Source of the DNA: Thermovirga lienii DSM 17291
Lineage (GTDB): Bacteria > Synergistota > Synergistia > Synergistales > Thermovirgaceae
DNA: 64,000 nt
Assembly: GCA_000233775.1 (NCBI GenBank)
Contig: CP003096.1
Span: 744,001-808,000 of the forward strand
Direction: 5' to 3'
Shown here: one piece after another, positions 11,965 through 45,100 of the stretch
How the letters are laid out: each line of letters opens with the position of its first letter
Position numbering within the stretch: the stretch's first letter is position 1
The notes under the pieces: model-generated
What the model saw: the letters and a program-made list of their open reading frames with translations, nothing else
Database searches by the model: none
What the model was told of the DNA's origin: nothing
Program-made: the position numbers and the translations under genes

Positions 11965-14202
11965 ATGGCAAATGTATTTTCCGTCGAGGTCGGCGGAGAG
12001 GTAATGACTTTTGAGACGGGAACTTTAGCGAAACAGGCTAATGGTTCCGTAACAGTCTCCATGGGGGAGACCGTGCTGCTTGTCACAGCATGTTTTTCTG
12101 AGGAAGCGAGAGAAGGTATAGACTTTTTCCCTCTTCTTGTGGATTACGAGGAGAGGTTTTATTCTGCGGGTAAGATACCCGGCGGGTTCATAAAAAGGGA
12201 AGGTAGGCCGTCTGAGACGGCGATATTGGCTGCACGACTGACTGATAGATCCATAAGATCTCTTTTTCCCGAGCATATGCGGAACGATGTCCACGTGGTC
12301 GCTACAACCCTTTCTGTGGACCAGGAAAACTCCCCAAGTGTTTTGGCGATAAACGGCGCGTCTGCGGCCCTCACCATATCAGATATTCCTTGGGAAGGCC
12401 CTGTCGGTGCTGTGAGGATCGGCTATATAGATGGACAACTGGTGGTAAACCCTACTGAAAGCTTAATGCGAAACAGTTCTTTAGATCTTGTTGTGAGCGG
12501 TCATAGGGATGGCATAACCATGGTTGAGGCTGGAGCTAACGAAGTTTCAGAGGATCTTTTGGTTGAGGCCTTGGCGTTGGCTCAGGAGGAAATCAAGAAG
12601 ATCGTAGACCTCCAGTTGGAGATGATGGAAAAAATAGGCAAGGAAAAGGTCCAAATACCTGAGCCCCTTGAGTTTCCTGGTATAGATAGATGGATAAAAG
12701 ACAACCTTTACGAAGAGATAAAGACTGCCGTTATGATCCATGAGAAAAAACCGAGGGCCAAGGCTTTGGATGAAATAGAGAGGAAAGCCATTGAAGCCTT
12801 GATGGAAGAGCACCCTGACAAAGAAGGCTACATAAAGGAATACATAGGTAAGTTAATAAAGAAAGCGGTGAGGGAGCTTATAGTCTTCGAAGGCAAAAGA
12901 GCCGACGGAAGAAGGACCGATGAGATAAGGCCCATAAGCTGCAAAGTGGGGGTTTTGCCCAGAACCCATGGTTCGGCAATATTCACAAGAGGTGAAACCC
13001 AGGCCCTTGTGACCACCACTCTGGGAATGGTAGGAGAAGATGACCAGCTGGTGGATGGGCTCCAACATGACGAGACCTCTAAGCGCTTCATGCTGCATTA
13101 TAACTTCCCGCCGTACTCCGTAGGTGAGGTTAGACCTATGAGAGGGCCAGGCAGACGAGAGATAGGACACGGGGCACTTGCGGAGAGGGCAGTCAGACCG
13201 CTGCTTCCCGATGAAGCTTTATTCCCTTACGCCATTAGGGTCGTTTCGGATATATTAGAGTCCAACGGTTCAAGTTCCATGGCTTCTGTGTGTGGTGCCA
13301 GTTTGTCTTTAATGGATGCTGGAGTGCCGATTAAAAAGGCCGTAGCGGGTGTTGCCATGGGGCTCATCAAGGAAGGGGACAAGGTGGTGGTTCTAACTGA
13401 TATACAAGGACTAGAAGATCACTTTGGCGATATGGATTTCAAGGTTGCAGGGACAAAGGATGGAGTTACCGCCTTGCAAATGGATAATAAGGCAGGTGGT
13501 ATCACCAAGGAGATACTTACTCAGGCTCTTGAACAGGCGAAACAAGGTAGGCTGTTCATCTTGGACAAGATGGAAGAAGCAATAAGGGAGCCTAGAGAAG
13601 AACTTTCCTCTCTTGCTCCTAGGATATACACATTGAAGGTAAATCAAGAGAAGATAAGGGATATCATCGGCCCAGGGGGCAAAACCATTAGGAGCATAGT
13701 TGCTGAGACTGGTGTCAAGATAGATGTGGAAGATAATGGTACCGTGCTCATTGCGTCAAGCAACAGGGAATCCGCGCAAAAGGCCATAAGCATCATAGAA
13801 GAATTGGTTAAAGAGGTGGAAGCAGGAGATGTCTACCTAGGCAAGGTGACAAGGCTTATGCCCTTCGGTGCTTTTGTGGAGGTCCTTCCAGGAAAGGAGG
13901 GCTTACTGCATGTGAGCGAAGTGAGTACTCATCATGTTGCTAAGGTGGACGATATTCTGAAGCCGGGAGATATGGTCTTGGTCGTGGTTAAGGAGATAGA
14001 CGACATGGGTCGGATAAACCTCTCCAGGAAGAGGATATTCGATAGAAAGGAAGAGGTACAAGCTTTATACGAAGAAGCTTTTTCAGAAGAGATGATAAGA
14101 GAGGAAAAAATAGAAAGCTCCTCAAAAAAGAGGGAGAGACCTCCCGTTAGGGATAGGAAGAATTCGCCAAGATCCAACGAGCAACCTAGGAGGCGTGGCT
14201 AG
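11965..14202 (+). CDS. pnp: Polyribonucleotide nucleotidyltransferase (PNPase)
   Basis: Phosphorolytic 3'-5' exoribonuclease of 745 residues. Two RNase PH domains flank a helical linker (first about 1-210; second about 310-540, including [14 protein letters not shown] and [19 protein letters not shown]). A KH domain (about 553-615, with [12 protein letters not shown]) and an S1 domain (about 622-690) follow, ending in a basic Arg/Lys/Ser/Pro-rich tail. The start ATG at 11965 has GAGGAGG ten bases ahead. It ends two bases before dut. Confidence 0.97.
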
Positions 14203-14204
14203 TT

Positions 14205-14654
14205 ATGGAGAAGAATAAGATCTCGATTTACATTAGTAGGAGCAAAGAAAACGAAGACCTTCCTCTTCCTAAATATGCCACTGAAGGTTCCTCGGGAATG
14301 GACGTCGTGGCTGCTGAAGAGTGTGTCCTTCAGCCAGGAGAATGGAAGGCTGTTGGTACGGGACTTTTCATGGAGATCCCTAGCGGTTACGAGTGCCAAG
14401 TTAGGCCTCGAAGTGGCCTGGCTCTCAGAGATGGGGTTACAGTTTTGAATGCCCCAGGGACAGTAGACAGTGACTATCGAGGTGAGGTCAAGGTTATATT
14501 GATAAACCATGGGAAGCAACCTTTCAAAATTTCTAGAGGGGATAGAATAGCTCAGCTGGTGTTCGCGAAAGTAGAAAAGGCAGAGCTTCATCTGAAAGAA
14601 GAACTTACGGCCACAGTCCGCGGTAGTGGAGGTTTTGGCAGTACGGGAAAATGA
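14205..14654 (+). CDS. dut: dUTP diphosphatase
   Basis: Trimeric dUTPase of 149 residues that removes dUTP and supplies dUMP for thymidylate synthesis (thyX is at 32883). The five family motifs can be read: [39 protein letters not shown] and the C-terminal GSGGFGSTG loop. It starts two bases after the pnp stop. The ribosome site is the purine run at the end of pnp. Confidence 0.96.
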
Positions 14655-14681
14655 ATAAGAATAAAATGAATAAATCGTAAG

Positions 14682-14713
14682 AAGGGGCAGCCCCGTAACG
14701 GGCTGCCCCTTTC
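14682..14713. terminator. Bidirectional terminator between dut and the SNF transporter pair
   Basis: Perfect 12-base inverted repeat (14682-14693 with 14700-14711), six-base loop, T-rich on both strands. It serves dut on the plus strand and the 31-residue gene on the minus strand. Confidence 0.85.
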
Positions 14714-14735
14714 CCATATCTAGAATTTTAGAGTT

Positions 14736-14831
14736 TTATTGTTTTTCAGCTTTCATCGTTTTAGCCACGCACCAGAACGTTCCACCCCACACTATCAAGA
14801 GAACTAAAATCATGTAAACTTGCCAGCCCAT
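14736..14831 (-). CDS. 31-residue single-span membrane protein, probable small subunit of the SNF transporter
   Basis: ATG at 14831 with a very strong ribosome site (AAGGAGGGATC eight bases ahead), stop at 14736. The product is one hydrophobic span (about residues 5-22, VYMILVLLIVWGGTFW) with a lysine-rich tail (KTMKAEKQ). It lies 47 bases downstream of the symporter on the same strand, just before the shared terminator. Known precedent: MetPS-type transporters need a small single-span partner (MetS) encoded next to the NSS subunit. That this protein plays the same role is inferred from position, size and topology. It is shorter than the MetS proteins I know of. Confidence 0.78.
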   Translation of the reverse strand: MGWQVYMILVLLIVWGGTFWCVAKTMKAEKQ

Positions 14832-14878
14832 AAATGATCCCTCCTTTGGCTAGGCTCAAAAGATACCCGTTATCTTCT

Positions 14879-16351
14879 TTAATCAGTGGCTTCGAACTTG
14901 TGAGTCATCTTGTCGGCCAGCCAGTTGTTAAGCAACAAGAACACCACGACCATTATGGCCCACTGATACACCATGGTTCCTACCGTGTAGGTGTATTCGG
15001 AGATGGGAAGCCATTTCCACCAACTGTCAGGATACCAGCTCATAGCCTGCTTGATCCACCAGGTAAAGATGATTACGAACCAAAGGGGGAAGAGGTATAT
15101 GAGCTTCCACATCCAAGAGGCTTTGAGGTCGGAACACGGTTCGATGTATTCCCTCCATATCTTGTCCACGCCTATCTTCATCGCTCCTATGGAGAAGAAC
15201 ACGCCGCTTACCAACAATCCTACACCCCATACCCAGTCTTGGTTATTGAGGAAATCAATACTCATGGAGGAAGGTAGGCCAAGGATCGTTATCCCTATAC
15301 CTGCTGCAAGGGCCGCCTTATGGCGAGGCCACCCGGCATCCATGAGGAGTCTTACTCCCAACTCAACCATGGAGAGCAGTGAGCTCAAAGCTGCAAAGAT
15401 CAATGCCAGGAAGAAAAAGCCTGCGAACAGGGTGCCAGCGGGCATTACAGTGAAGAGTTTCGTCAAATGGATGAATGCAAGGCCTGTGTTTCCGGAGCCG
15501 ACTGCTGCCATGGGATCTGAAGAGAGTGCAAAGATGGTGGGTATTATGGCCATAGCTGCGATCATAGCTGCCGATGTGTCCGCGAAGCAGATGGTTGTGG
15601 CGTTTAGAGAAATGTCCTCGGTTTTCTTTGCGTAGACAAAGTAAGTAAGTAAAAGACCCCAACCTGCACCGGTAGACCAGGCAACCTGCGTGAACGCTTC
15701 AAGCCAAAGCCTTCCAGAAGCGAAAAGCTCAAACCTGGGTTCGAAAAGATACTGTAATCCCTTTACTGCGCCAGGGAGCGTTATGGCTCTTATCATTAAA
15801 ACTACCAGTAAAACAAAAAGGCTTGGAATTAGTATCTTGTTGATCTTCTCGAGTCCCTGGGATATTCCTTTGAAAATAACTATGGTCGCTATCACCATGG
15901 AGATGATGTGCCACGGGACCATGGCTCCAGGAGTTGTGGAGAAGGCGGTCCAAAGGGCCTCTGTGTCCAGTCCCGGTTTGATGACTCCGGTCAGAACATA
16001 TACAAAATATCTTACGCACCAACCCATGACTACGGCGTAGTAGAAGGCGATGCCCAATGATATCCATGCGACACAGCCTCCGGCCCACGTCCACTTTCTG
16101 CCCAGCATTTCCTTAAACGACCCTATGACCCCCATTCTGGTTACTTTGCCCCAAACTGACTCTGCCATAAGAAGTGGTATAGCCCATAAAAATAAAGCAA
16201 CGACACACGCCAAAACAAAGGCCCCTCCGCCTTGGGCTGCTGCTACTCGAGGGAAGCGCCAAATGTTACCTGTACCTACAGCCATACCTATTGCGGAGAA
16301 TATTAATCCCCACCTACTAGCCCACTGATCAGCTTTCTTAATCTCGGCCAT
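14879..16351 (-). CDS. Sodium-dependent amino-acid symporter, SNF/NSS family
   Basis: Sodium-coupled amino-acid importer of 490 residues with 11-12 hydrophobic spans. The family signature GNIWRFP lies at residues 28-34 in the first span, preceded by GMAVGTG. The unwound part of span 6 is suggested by TQVAWSTGAGWGLLLTY. Substrate cannot be told; bacterial relatives carry tryptophan, tyrosine, leucine, methionine or alanine. The start ATG at 16351 follows AGGAGGGAT. It is transcribed away from thrS and followed by a small membrane partner gene. Confidence 0.93.
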   Translation of the reverse strand: MAEIKKADQWASRWGLIFSAIGMAVGTGNIWRFPRVAAAQGGGAFVLACVVALFLWAIPLLMAESVWGKVTRMGVIGSFKEMLGRKWTWAGGCVAWISLGIAFYYAVVMGWCVRYFVYVLTGVIKPGLDTEALWTAFSTTPGAMVPWHIISMVIATIVIFKGISQGLEKINKILIPSLFVLLVVLMIRAITLPGAVKGLQYLFEPRFELFASGRLWLEAFTQVAWSTGAGWGLLLTYFVYAKKTEDISLNATTICFADTSAAMIAAMAIIPTIFALSSDPMAAVGSGNTGLAFIHLTKLFTVMPAGTLFAGFFFLALIFAALSSLLSMVELGVRLLMDAGWPRHKAALAAGIGITILGLPSSMSIDFLNNQDWVWGVGLLVSGVFFSIGAMKIGVDKIWREYIEPCSDLKASWMWKLIYLFPLWFVIIFTWWIKQAMSWYPDSWWKWLPISEYTYTVGTMVYQWAIMVVVFLLLNNWLADKMTHKFEATD

Positions 16352-16697
16352 TCTTTAAATCCCTCCTAAGCTGAACAAAAATAAACTGCACCAATACTCC
16401 ATTTCTTGAACAAAAACGGAAAAAAATGAAGGGGTCTTTCTTGCTAGCACCTCCTTTCCCTGTTGTAGTGGCTGCAATGTATGCAGGGAATGAGGTGTGG
16501 CTTTAGGTGGATCGTAAGGTTTTTGAAAAGTTGGAATAAAAATAAAGTCAGAAAGATTACACATAATATATCATTTTTTACTAAAGGCATAAAGTGTTTT
16601 AGTATACTTATTTTTGTATGGAAACGACTAAAATCTTATGCTGTGGTACAATTCAGTAAAACATGCTTAAGGTAAAAAGTTTTCGGGAGGGATTAAT
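16352..16697. other. Divergent intergenic region between the SNF transporter and thrS
   Basis: 346 bases without a convincing gene. It holds a two-step inverted repeat (CACCTC/GAGGTG outside, CCCTG/CAGGG inside, 16449-16497) whose minus-strand form ends in an AGGAGGTG and is followed by a T-rich stretch. The AT-rich part at 16560-16660 probably carries both promoters, but no pair of boxes is clear enough to name. Confidence 0.5.
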
Positions 16698-18590
16698 TTG
16701 ATAAATGGACCAGAAAGTAGAAGTTATTCGGGAGCTCTTCCTGTTAGTGTAATTGAGGTCTTCAAAGAGTGGAAATGTGCGAAAGGTGCTGTGGCTGCTC
16801 GTTTCAATGGCACCTTGGTGGATTTGCATTATAAGCTGACGGCAGGAGGTTTCTTGGAACCAGTTTACATTGCCAGTGAGGAAGGGTTGGAGGTTTTAAG
16901 GCATTCGGCATCCCATCTTTTGGCTCAGGCGGTAAAAAGGCTTTACCCGGGAACCAAACTTGGCATAGGGCCGGCCATAAAAGATGGTTTCTACTACGAT
17001 CTGGATGTGCCGCAGCAGATATCAGAAGAGGCTCTTCTTAAGATTGAGCAAGAGATGAGGCGAATAGTCAAGGAAAACTTGCCAATAACCAGAAAAGTTT
17101 TAACGAAAGAGGAGGCAAAAGCCCTTTTTGCGGAGAAGGAAGAGATATATAAGCTTGAACTTATCGAGGAACTGCCTGATAGCGAAGTAAGTATATATGA
17201 GCAGGGTGAGTTTCTGGATCTTTGTAGAGGTCCCCATGTTCCTAGCACTTCACACATAAAACATTTCAAACTACTTTCTCTAGCGGGGGCTTATTGGCGA
17301 GGCGACGAGAAGAACAAGATGTTGACCAGGATCTACGGTACAGCTTTTGGGACGAAAGAGGAGCTTGAAGCATATATAACTAGAATGGAGGAAGCCAAGC
17401 GCCGGGATCACAGAAAGCTCGGAAAGGAGTTGGATTTGTTCAGCATTCAACCTGAGGGACCAGGTTTTCCTTTCTTCCATCCCAAAGGGATGGTTATCAT
17501 AAACAAGCTCGTAGATTTCTGGCGCAAGGAGCACGAAAAACGGGGATACTGTGAGATACGGACTCCTCTTATTTTGGATAGGGACCTTTGGATCCGTTCA
17601 GGGCACTGGGATCATTACAGAGAGAACATGTATTTTACTGAGATAGATGAAAGACCTTTCGCCATAAAGCCCATGAACTGCCCTGGTGGCATTCTGGTCT
17701 ACAAGAGCAGGATCCGAAGCTACAGGGATCTACCACTGAGGATGGCTGAGCTTGGAACGGTTCATAGGCATGAGAGGTCAGGGGTTCTTCACGGCCTTAT
17801 GAGAGTGAGATGTTTTACTCAGGACGACGCCCATTTGTACGTAACACCAGACCAGATAAAAGAGGAAATTTTGGGAATAATGGACTTGGTTAAGTACGTT
17901 TATAAGGATGTGTTTGGGTTCAACTACCGTGTCGAGTTGTCGACCAAGCCGGAGAAAGCCATGGGCGATCCCTTGATGTGGGAAAAGGCAGAAAAAGCCC
18001 TTGAGGAGGCTTTGGAGACAGCAGGAGTGGAGTTCAAGGTGAACCCCGGAGATGGTGCCTTCTATGGTCCTAAGATAGATTTTCACTTGGAGGATTGCAT
18101 AGGCAGGACATGGCAGTGTGGAACGATACAATTGGATTTCCAGATGCCGGAGAAATTTGATATAACCTACGTTGGGCCCGATGGTGAGCACCATAGGCCA
18201 GTTATGCTCCATAGAACCGTTTTTGGGAGTCTTGAGAGGTTTTTGGGGATACTCATAGAGCATTATGCGGGGGCCTTCCCCTTCTGGCTTGCTCCAGTTC
18301 AGGTCAAGATATTGCCTGTAAGAGGAGAGTACAACGGTTATGCGTCGGAGGTTTTCGATAAACTGAAAGAAAAGGGCTTCAGAGTGGAGTTGGATCAGAG
18401 AGAGGAAAAGTTGGGCAAAAAGATCAGGGATGCCCAAATGGAAAAGATTCCGTACATGTTGGTCATAGGTTCCAAGGAAGCCCAAGAGCAGACCGTTGCC
18501 GTTAGGGAACGACAAGCAGGAGACTTAGGCTCCATGACTTTGGAAGAGTTGGTTAAACTTTTGGAGGACAAGGAATCACCGACAGCATAG
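16698..18590 (+). CDS. thrS: Threonyl-tRNA synthetase
   Basis: Class II synthetase of 630 residues. A short TGS-like domain (about 1-65) is followed by the editing domain, with HSASHLL at about 72 and the DLCRGPH zinc/editing motif near 178. The catalytic core has the zinc-ligand region PMNCPG, motif 2 (HRHERSGVLHGLMRVRCFTQDD) and motif 3 (GSLERFLGILIEHY). The C-terminal anticodon-binding domain begins near 535. Start TTG at 16698 behind GGGAGGG. No T-box element could be recognised upstream. Confidence 0.95.
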   Translation: MINGPESRSYSGALPVSVIEVFKEWKCAKGAVAARFNGTLVDLHYKLTAGGFLEPVYIASEEGLEVLRHSASHLLAQAVKRLYPGTKLGIGPAIKDGFYYDLDVPQQISEEALLKIEQEMRRIVKENLPITRKVLTKEEAKALFAEKEEIYKLELIEELPDSEVSIYEQGEFLDLCRGPHVPSTSHIKHFKLLSLAGAYWRGDEKNKMLTRIYGTAFGTKEELEAYITRMEEAKRRDHRKLGKELDLFSIQPEGPGFPFFHPKGMVIINKLVDFWRKEHEKRGYCEIRTPLILDRDLWIRSGHWDHYRENMYFTEIDERPFAIKPMNCPGGILVYKSRIRSYRDLPLRMAELGTVHRHERSGVLHGLMRVRCFTQDDAHLYVTPDQIKEEILGIMDLVKYVYKDVFGFNYRVELSTKPEKAMGDPLMWEKAEKALEEALETAGVEFKVNPGDGAFYGPKIDFHLEDCIGRTWQCGTIQLDFQMPEKFDITYVGPDGEHHRPVMLHRTVFGSLERFLGILIEHYAGAFPFWLAPVQVKILPVRGEYNGYASEVFDKLKEKGFRVELDQREEKLGKKIRDAQMEKIPYMLVIGSKEAQEQTVAVRERQAGDLGSMTLEELVKLLEDKESPTA

Positions 18591-42166: not shown

Positions 42167-45100
42167 TCCCTTTGTTCACCTTCATGTCCACAGCGAATAT
42201 AGCTTACTGGATGGAGCTATTAGGTGTGACAGGCTTGCCAATAGAGTCAGAGAGTGGCAGGTCCCCGCGGTTGCTTTGACCGATCATGGAGCCATGTATG
42301 GCGTAATTGAGTTCTACGGACAATGTATGTCCAAGGGGGTAAAGCCGATAATAGGGTGCGAGGTCTATGTGGATCCCAGAGGGCATACCCTGAAAGATAG
42401 ACAAGGTAAGAATTACCACCTTCTGCTACTTGCCGAGACGCAAGAAGGGTATCAAAATCTTGTGAAGTTGGTTTCAATAGCTAATACTGATGGCTTTTAC
42501 TACAAGCCGAGGGTCGATCATGATCTGCTCGCCCGTTACAGCAAAGGTTTAATTGCCTCGTCTGCGTGCCTTTCTGGGGAGATTCCCTCCCTCATCTTAG
42601 AGGGCAACATTGAGGAGGCCCAATCGAGGGCTTCTCTTTATCGGGACATATTTGGAAAGGACAATTTTTTCCTGGAGGTAATGTATAACGAGGTTTCAGA
42701 TCAGGCGTTGGTCAACAAAAGGTTGGTCGAAATGTCCAAAAAGATGGATATACCGCTCATAGCGACCAACGATGCCCACTATCTAGATAAAAGCGATGCG
42801 TCTTGGCACGATGTCCTTCTTTGTGTGCAGACCAATGCAACTATAAATGCCCCCAACAGGTATCGGTTTGGTTCAAATGATTTTTACTTGCGCTCTCCCG
42901 AGGAGATGTGGGCCATATTCGGAAAGGAACTGCCAGAAGCCCTCACAAACACCGTAAATATAGCGGAAAGGTGCGACGTTAAAATAGAGTTTTCTGGTTA
43001 CCATTTGCCGGAGGTCAGGCTAATGGAGGGTGAGACCTTAGAGCAGGCTCTGAGGCGCAGAGCTGTAGAGGGGCTTGCAGCGAGGTTCCATGGACAGACT
43101 CCTCCAGAAGAATATACTAAGCGCCTGGAGTATGAGTTAGCCGTTATAGAGGAGATGGGGTTTGCCGGTTACTTCCTGATAGTGGCCGACATAATACAGG
43201 AGGCCAAGGCAAAGGGCATTCCAGTGGGGCCAGGAAGGGGTTCCGCTGCGGGTTCCTTGGTTGCCTATGCCCTTAAGATTACAGAGATAGATCCCTTACG
43301 CTACAATCTGCTCTTTGAGCGATTCTTGAACCCTGAAAGGATAAGCATGCCGGATATAGACACAGATATCTCTGACAAGCGCAGGGAAGAGGTCCTCGCT
43401 CAGATAGTGGCAAAGTATGGGAGAGAAAAAGTGGCCCAGATAATCACTTTTGATCGTATGAAGAGCAAAGCAGCAATAAGAGATGTGGGAAGGGCTTTGG
43501 ACATGCCATACGCGGAAGTAGATAAGGTGGCCAAATTGGTGCCTCCAGGAGCTTCGTCTATAGAAGAGGCCATGGAGCAGAGCCCAGAATTGAAGGAGAT
43601 TCACAAAAATGATCCCGCTGTGAGGAGATTGCTTGACTACGCTTCGAGTATAGAGGGTCTTGCCAGACATTGTTCTCAACATGCTGCAGGTGTGGTTATA
43701 GCACCCAAAGCCATAACTGATTACGTACCAGTGAGAAAGATAGGAGAAGACCAGGTAGTGACCCAGTTTGCGATGGAGCATGTAGAAAAATTGGGTCTAG
43801 TCAAAATGGACTTTTTGGGGTTGAGGACCCTTTCAGTTATAGAGGAGACTTTGAAAAACATTAGGAATAATGGAAAGGTGCCACCGGATATAAACAATTT
43901 ACCATTGGACGACGAAGCTACGTACCAATTATTGTCGGATGGGGACACGTTAGGAGTGTTCCAATTAGAATCTTCTGGAATGAGACAGTTGTTAAGAAAG
44001 CTGAAACCAGACTGTTTCGAGGACCTTATAGCTGTTTTGGCTTTGTATAGGCCCGGACCATTGGGCAGTGGCATGGTGGATCAGTATATAGAGTGCAAAC
44101 ACGGACGTCAGGAACCTTCTTACCTTCACCCACTTTTGGAAGACGTGTTGAAGGAGACCCATGGTGTAATTTTGTATCAAGAACAGGTAATGCAATGTGC
44201 ATCCATACTGGCAGGTTATAGTCTTGGGCAAGCAGATCTTCTCAGACGAGCCATGGGTAAGAAAAAAGTGGACGTCATGGCGAAAGAAAGGGAGAATTTC
44301 CTCAAGGGATGTGCTGAGAGAGGAATTGAAGAAAAAAAGGCCGAACAAATTTTCGATATCATCCAGGAGTTTGCTGGCTACGGGTTCAATAAATCTCACA
44401 GCACCGCTTATGCTATGATAAGTTACCAGACGGCCTATCTAAAGGCTCATTTCCCCGTGGAGTTCATGGCAGCGTTTCTCTCCAGCCATGTTCACTCCAA
44501 ACTTGATATATTGGCTAAACACGTGAGGGCGGTGAGGGATTCAGGTATTCACGTCTCTCCTCCTGACATAAACAGGTCCCATGACTCATTTACGGCCAAT
44601 GGAGATGAGATACTTTTTGGTCTTGGAGCGGTTTCCAAGGTAGGAGACGCAGCTGTAGATGCTATTTTGAGAGCGAGAAGCGAAGGTCCCTTCAAGTCCT
44701 TCTGGGACTTTTTAAACAGAGTGGACTTAAGGGTAGTGAGCAAGGGTGTGATAGAGAACCTCATCAAAGCAGGAGCCTTCGACAGCATTTCAAAGAACAG
44801 AAAACAGCTGTTGGAAGCGTTACCTGCATTTGTTGAAATGGTGCAGAAAAGATCGTCAGACGGAAGGCAGCGTTCCTTGTTGGATCTAGTGAGTGATGAG
44901 CAGCCTGACGAAGAACCCGAGCTACCTGATGTGGAGGATTTGGATTTTCATTCTCGATTGGAACTGGAGAAAGAGGCGACAGGGCTTTATATTTCGGGCC
45001 ATCCCTGCGACCAACACAAAAGTGAGTACTGGAAATACGTCACTTGTTCCATTGGAGAGCTTCCTTTCTGGAAGTCAGAAAGAATTAAGCCTGTGGTGGC

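What the first reader, a model, noticed from the sequence alone, without database searches (positions are those of the whole stretch)
14736..14831. 31-residue membrane partner of an SNF symporter
It has a very strong ribosome site, one hydrophobic span and a charged tail, and lies between the symporter and a shared terminator. Gene callers with a length cut-off would miss it. It would be among the smallest partners of an NSS-type transporter and could be required for transport, as MetS is for MetP.
Basis: partly seen in the sequence, partly recalled or inferred. Interest (0 to 1): 0.6.

Follow-up and report, generated by a model that had tools for sequence, protein, structure and literature searches.

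The report
Tiny membrane partner of sodium–amino-acid symporter
Next to the gene of a sodium-driven (probably amino-acid) importer lies a real, conserved gene for a 31-residue single-helix membrane protein; it belongs with the already described MetS-like small transporter subunits, is too divergent for the current reference model to name, and in this phylum accompanies every long (12-span) importer of this type examined and none of the short (11-span) ones.

Summary
In detail: window 14736-14831 on the MINUS strand encodes MGWQVYMILVLLIVWGGTFWCVAKTMKAEKQ, 47 nt after the stop of an SNF/NSS symporter (14879-16351, minus), with ribosome site AAGGAGGGA and a strong hairpin shared with convergent dut. 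The frame is under clear purifying selection, and 29-43-residue relatives follow the symporter in the same order and strand across Synergistota. A per-gene survey found one after 43 of 43 distinct 12-span SNF genes of this clade and after 0 of 34 eleven-span SNF paralogues. In a wider scan (Clostridia, Actinomycetota, Acidobacteriota, KSB1, Bacteroidota and others) 72 of 79 assessable relatives have it. It is not a new kind of thing: NCBIfam has a 30-position model "MetS family NSS transporter small subunit" (NF033493); this protein scores 22.2 bits against a cut-off of 25, and profile-profile comparison with a cohort that includes an above-cut-off member gives E = 3.4e-13. A length of 31 is normal for the family. 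New here: the model passes its cut-off in only 4 of 188 Synergistota genomes, so this branch is largely unnamed, and the partner tracks the twelfth transmembrane span.

The parts
14736..14831 (-). CDS of the 31-aa MetS-like small subunit (ATG 14831-14829, stop TAA 14738-14736)
   Evidence: conserved frame; NF033493 at 22.2 bits
14838..14846 (-). ribosome-binding site AAGGAGGGA, 6 nt before the ATG
   Evidence: (sequence)
14879..16351 (-). SNF/NSS sodium symporter, 490 aa, 12-span form (last span about residues 457-481)
   Evidence: Pfam PF00209 1.6e-51; PDB matches MhsT and LeuT; C-terminal span present
14681..14712 (.). perfect hairpin between convergent dut and the small gene, probable bidirectional terminator
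   Evidence: weak T-tract, not listed by the consensus scan

Best explanation
14736-14831 (minus) encodes a MetS-like small subunit: a single transmembrane helix, N-terminus outside and Lys-rich C-terminus inside, probably co-transcribed with and translated separately after its 12-span NSS symporter. Most likely it packs against the symporter in the membrane as an accessory helix needed for stable assembly or for transport activity, as MetS is for MetP of Corynebacterium glutamicum. Shown here: the gene, its selection, its linkage, its homology and the match with the 12-span form. Inferred: co-transcription, topology (positive-inside), physical binding, and the requirement for transport.
For: Same order, strand and close spacing in Synergistota: 43 of 43 distinct long SNF genes versus 0 of 34 short ones. 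72 of 79 assessable relatives over many phyla. pN much below pS. Homology to NF033493: single sequence E 8.2e-5; profile versus a cohort including a 38.9-bit member E 3.4e-13, probability 97.9%. C-side carries more Lys/Arg than the N-side in 100 of 100 relatives. The metP-metS pair is described as a two-subunit NSS member (PMC3219685; metS as putative methionine transporter subunit, PMC2807442; primary work Trotschel et al. 2008, doi 10.1021/bi801206t, not held here, its content recalled).
Against: The single sequence is below the curated cut-off of NF033493 and far below those of NF033494 and PF16951. Six relatives of the same branch have no partner nearby, so such an NSS can do without an adjacent one. 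Solved LeuT, also 12-span, is known without such a subunit (own knowledge). Three genomes carry an additional copy not next to an SNF gene. AlphaFold2 on a read-through fusion gave a confident helix for the small protein (pLDDT about 90), but the interface could not be inspected.
Confidence: 0.8

Rival explanations
1. It binds the symporter but is a dispensable modulator (inhibitor, stabiliser against proteolysis, or specificity modifier), like MgtS, AcrZ or MgtU for other transporters, rather than a subunit needed for transport.
For: Small single-span proteins commonly modulate or stabilise transporters (review PMC10710835). Six relatives lack the gene beside the symporter. Nothing here measures activity.
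Against: The known regulatory small proteins are mostly made under their own control and lineage-restricted (own knowledge); this one is encoded right behind its symporter across many phyla, which fits a constitutive subunit better. The one studied homologue is reported as a subunit.
Confidence: 0.17
2. It is a free-standing small membrane protein that only shares the operon and acts elsewhere.
For: Orphan copies, in one read locus after gpmA (L062), in three genomes; one genome kept the small gene without the SNF gene (L061) and one has a decayed SNF gene (L063).
Against: 43 of 43 long SNF genes have it and 0 of 34 short ones do; the pairing recurs in many phyla.
Confidence: 0.025
3. Spurious ORF: chance frame in a spacer.
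For: Only 31 codons; would fall under common length cut-offs.
Against: Strong purifying selection and homologues with a strong ribosome site throughout.
Confidence: 0.005

Closest known systems
NCBIfam NF033493 MetS_like_NSS (MetS family NSS transporter small subunit)
   Same: Size (model of 30 positions), one span, GG motif, Lys/Glu tail, gene directly after an NSS symporter; profile homology E 3.4e-13 to a cohort with an above-cut-off member.
   Different: Single-sequence score 22.2 below the cut-off of 25; Synergistota branch has an N-terminal MW/MGW..NM motif and often a Cys in the span; model passes in only 4 of 188 Synergistota genomes.
MetS of Corynebacterium glutamicum (NF033494; Pfam PF16951 MaAIMP_sms), partner of the methionine/alanine importer MetP
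   Same: Small single-span partner encoded next to an NSS transporter; two-subunit NSS described for the metP-metS pair (PMC3219685).
   Different: Longer (models of 53 and 60 positions); scores 14.4 of 70 and 13.2 of 26.2 bits; direct profile match of the Synergistota set to the actinobacterial set is weak (probability 20%), the link runs through an intermediate set. Substrate here unknown.
MhsT-type 11-span NSS transporters
   Same: Same SNF fold; best structural matches of the model are MhsT and LeuT.
   Different: The 11-span paralogues of the same genomes have no small gene.

Membership tests
NCBIfam NF033493 MetS-like NSS small subunit | Single-sequence score at or above the curated cut-off of 25 bits | tested here: not met
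   22.2 bits, E 8.2e-5
NCBIfam NF033493 MetS-like NSS small subunit | Homology to accepted members | tested here: met
   Profile-profile E 3.4e-13, probability 97.9%, 33 columns, to cohort A7; a member of that cohort scores 38.9 bits
NCBIfam NF033493 MetS-like NSS small subunit | Encoded beside an NSS (SNF) transporter gene | tested here: met
   47 nt after the stop of a PF00209 gene
NCBIfam NF033493 MetS-like NSS small subunit | One transmembrane span with charged C-terminal tail | tested here: met
   Sequence; helix 515-543 in the model of the relative; charge count
MetS proper (NF033494 / PF16951) | Score above the curated cut-off | tested here: not met
   14.4 of 70 bits; 13.2 of 26.2 bits
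MetS proper (NF033494 / PF16951) | Required for methionine/alanine uptake by the partner | not testable with these tools
   Needs uptake assays
SNF/NSS transporter (partner gene) | PF00209 above gathering score and LeuT fold | tested here: met
   176.1 bits against 27; fused model of the 78%-identical relative matches MhsT E 1e-20 and LeuT E 2e-19

The most novel reading that the evidence does not exclude
One ancient branch of bacterial NSS transporters, the 12-span branch to which this symporter belongs, consists of obligate two-subunit transporters in which a ~30-residue helix packs near the twelfth span; the 11-span branch works alone. If so, single-polypeptide LeuT and MhsT are incomplete models for a large part of bacterial NSS transporters.
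Probability: 0.3. Interest if true: 0.55.

Novelty: new member of a known kind. Interest (0 to 1): 0.36.

Why it matters
NSS transporters are the bacterial models for human neurotransmitter carriers, and the best-known ones (LeuT, MhsT) are studied as single chains. A partner helix conserved across many phyla with one structural type (12 spans) means that many bacterial NSS genes expressed alone for transport or structure work may lack a native part. The work also shows a concrete annotation gap: the existing family model passes its cut-off in only 4 of 188 Synergistota genomes although, in the genomes surveyed, every long SNF gene of the clade has a partner.

Tried and rejected
Plus-strand reading of the interval: not coding. 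Consensus terminator scan: does not list the hairpin because of its poor T-tract; folding shows it. Rfam on 14100-16900: nothing at gathering score. AlphaFold2 of a natural read-through fusion (relative L101, symporter and small gene in frame, 78% identical symporter): overall pLDDT 88.5, pTM 0.89, helix at 515-543, but linker below 50 and no coordinates or PAE available, so no interface claim is made. Search for a conserved helix face in 100 aligned relatives: no signal at 100 degrees (p = 0.82). Direct profile link from the Synergistota set to the actinobacterial set: weak; accepted only through an intermediate set. Literature search for a study of the 30-residue members: none found in the held library. 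Naming the plasmid through PLSDB: no match.

Full report
WHAT IS THERE. The interval 14736-14831 is an open frame of 31 codons on the minus strand; the plus strand is not coding there. Its product is MGWQVYMILVLLIVWGGTFWCVAKTMKAEKQ. It starts 47 nt after the stop of a 490-residue SNF symporter (14879-16351, minus), has the ribosome site AAGGAGGGA 6 nt before its ATG, and is followed by a perfect hairpin (14681-14712) that it shares with the convergent dUTPase gene (Pfam PF00692). The hairpin folds far better than shuffles on both strands, although its T-tract is poor. On the other side of the symporter lies the divergent threonyl-tRNA synthetase gene. The two contig lengths (1,967,774 and 31,872) suggest Thermovirga lienii DSM 17291; that species name rests on memory.

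IT IS A REAL GENE. Searching 101 related genomes with the 31 residues finds the gene throughout the family and order. Where the locus holds the symporter, the small frame sits on the same strand, generally 12-95 nt downstream, in one case 361 nt with repeated sequence in between, with a GGAGG-type site. Within the family, replacement changes are strongly suppressed: 1 of 78.3 replacement sites against 11 of 17.7 synonymous sites between L010 and L012; 8.5 of 74.8 against 10.5 of 18.2 between the window and its same-genus relative.

WHAT IT GOES WITH. Synergistota genomes hold two sorts of SNF gene: a long sort (about 490-500 residues) related to the window's gene at about 43% identity or more, and a short sort (about 450 residues) at about 35%. 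Of the distinct long genes with DNA downstream, a profile search finds the small gene after 42 of 44; the two misses are a relative whose small gene lies 361 nt away (L009, found) and the first half of a frameshifted gene whose second half has the small gene (L059). That makes 43 of 43 genes. For the short sort the count is 0 of 34. The two other SNF genes of the window's own genome are of the short sort and have none. The two sorts differ at the C-terminus: all 38 long proteins of at least 420 residues continue 43-65 residues from position 445 of the window's symporter, 37 of them with a clear hydrophobic stretch there (the 38th falls just below the threshold), while the 34 short ones end before it. 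So the partner goes with the 12-span form. This is a two-clade comparison, so it shows association and not cause.

HOW FAR IT REACHES. A scan of one genome per species returned the 80 best relatives of the long symporter, from Clostridia, Halanaerobiaceae, Bacillus, Halomonadaceae, Actinomycetota, Acidobacteriota, Aminicenantes, KSB1, Ignavibacteria and Bacteroidota, Kiritimatiellia and others by their record titles. One record (L165) ends inside the symporter gene. Of the other 79, 72 carry a recognisable small gene at or just after the stop, often overlapping it by 4 nt. L166 looks like a frameshifted copy by eye; six (L134, L141, L146, L156, L173, L179) show none. The profile used was built partly from these sequences, so the count of 72 is a consistency check of a list first made by frame, ribosome-site and hydrophobicity rules and curated by eye; the 0 of 34 for the short sort was obtained with the same profile.

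WHAT FAMILY. NCBIfam holds NF033493, 'MetS family NSS transporter small subunit', 30 positions long. The window's protein matches positions 9-29 with 22.2 bits, E 8.2e-5, below the cut-off of 25; Pfam MaAIMP_sms gives 13.2 of 26.2 bits. Fifteen of 28 varied relatives match NF033493 at E 0.01 or better. The profile of the window's branch matches that of an Acidobacteriota/KSB1-type set at E 3.4e-13, and a member of that set scores 38.9 bits against NF033493. I therefore take it as homologous to the MetS-like small subunits but do not claim formal NF033493 membership by its curated threshold. In 188 Synergistota genomes the model passes its cut-off in only 4: this branch goes largely unnamed.

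HOW IT PROBABLY WORKS. The C-terminal side carries more Lys/Arg than the N-terminal side in all 100 relatives (means 4.04 and 0.19), so the N-terminus should be outside and the tail inside (positive-inside rule). Best conserved in the span are a Met at position 7 and a Gly at 16, the latter followed by a second, less conserved Gly and a residue that is mostly Phe in relatives (Thr here), as expected for tight helix packing; a single conserved face could not be shown. A two-subunit NSS encoded by a metP-metS pair is described in the literature (PMC3219685; PMC2807442; primary paper doi 10.1021/bi801206t not held). By that precedent the small protein is most likely an accessory helix that the symporter needs for assembly or transport. 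Binding and requirement are inference. AlphaFold2 on a natural in-frame read-through of a 78%-identical relative predicted a confident symporter and a confident helix for the small protein, but no coordinates or PAE were available, so it says nothing about docking; Foldseek places the model with MhsT and LeuT.

VERDICT. Observation confirmed; interpretation right in kind, overstated in rarity, untested in 'required'. Known kind, unnamed branch, with a clean and testable association to 12-span NSS transporters.

Noticed in passing
L062 (G023:C1:3003008-3003091 -), also G031:C1:3080967-3081050 - and G038:C8:272499-272585 -: Additional 43-52-residue copies of the small protein, in G023 downstream of a phosphoglycerate mutase gene and not next to an SNF gene; each of these genomes also has a normal symporter-linked copy. 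An orphan copy may serve another transporter.
   Followed up: partly
L061 (G008:C6, around 78442-78528 +) and L063 (G014:C2, around 42844-42930 -): In G008 (a draft genome) the small gene persists without an SNF gene in front of it; in G014 the SNF gene is decayed while the small frame is intact.
   Followed up: partly
L180 2230-2565 (Haloferax gibbonsii pHG2) and L181 2239-2562 (Natronorubrum aibiense): These haloarchaeal SNF genes are followed directly by a gene annotated 'hypothetical protein' of about 107-111 residues (L180: one N-terminal span and a long charged tail, no Pfam match), then a proline racemase family gene: possibly an archaeal counterpart of the small subunit.
   Followed up: partly
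L009 (G004:C107), spacer between SNF and small gene: The usual short spacer is expanded to 361 nt with near-identical repeated blocks between symporter and partner, yet the partner gene is intact.
   Followed up: no
L099 3073-3177 (Persicobacter sp. JZB09 plasmid): A 34-residue single-span frame (MEWDSLMSMFLILGSVMSAFGYFLHLASKAEKEK) 72 nt after the stop of a long SNF gene in a record without annotation; a second Persicobacter (L098) shows no clear equivalent.
   Followed up: partly
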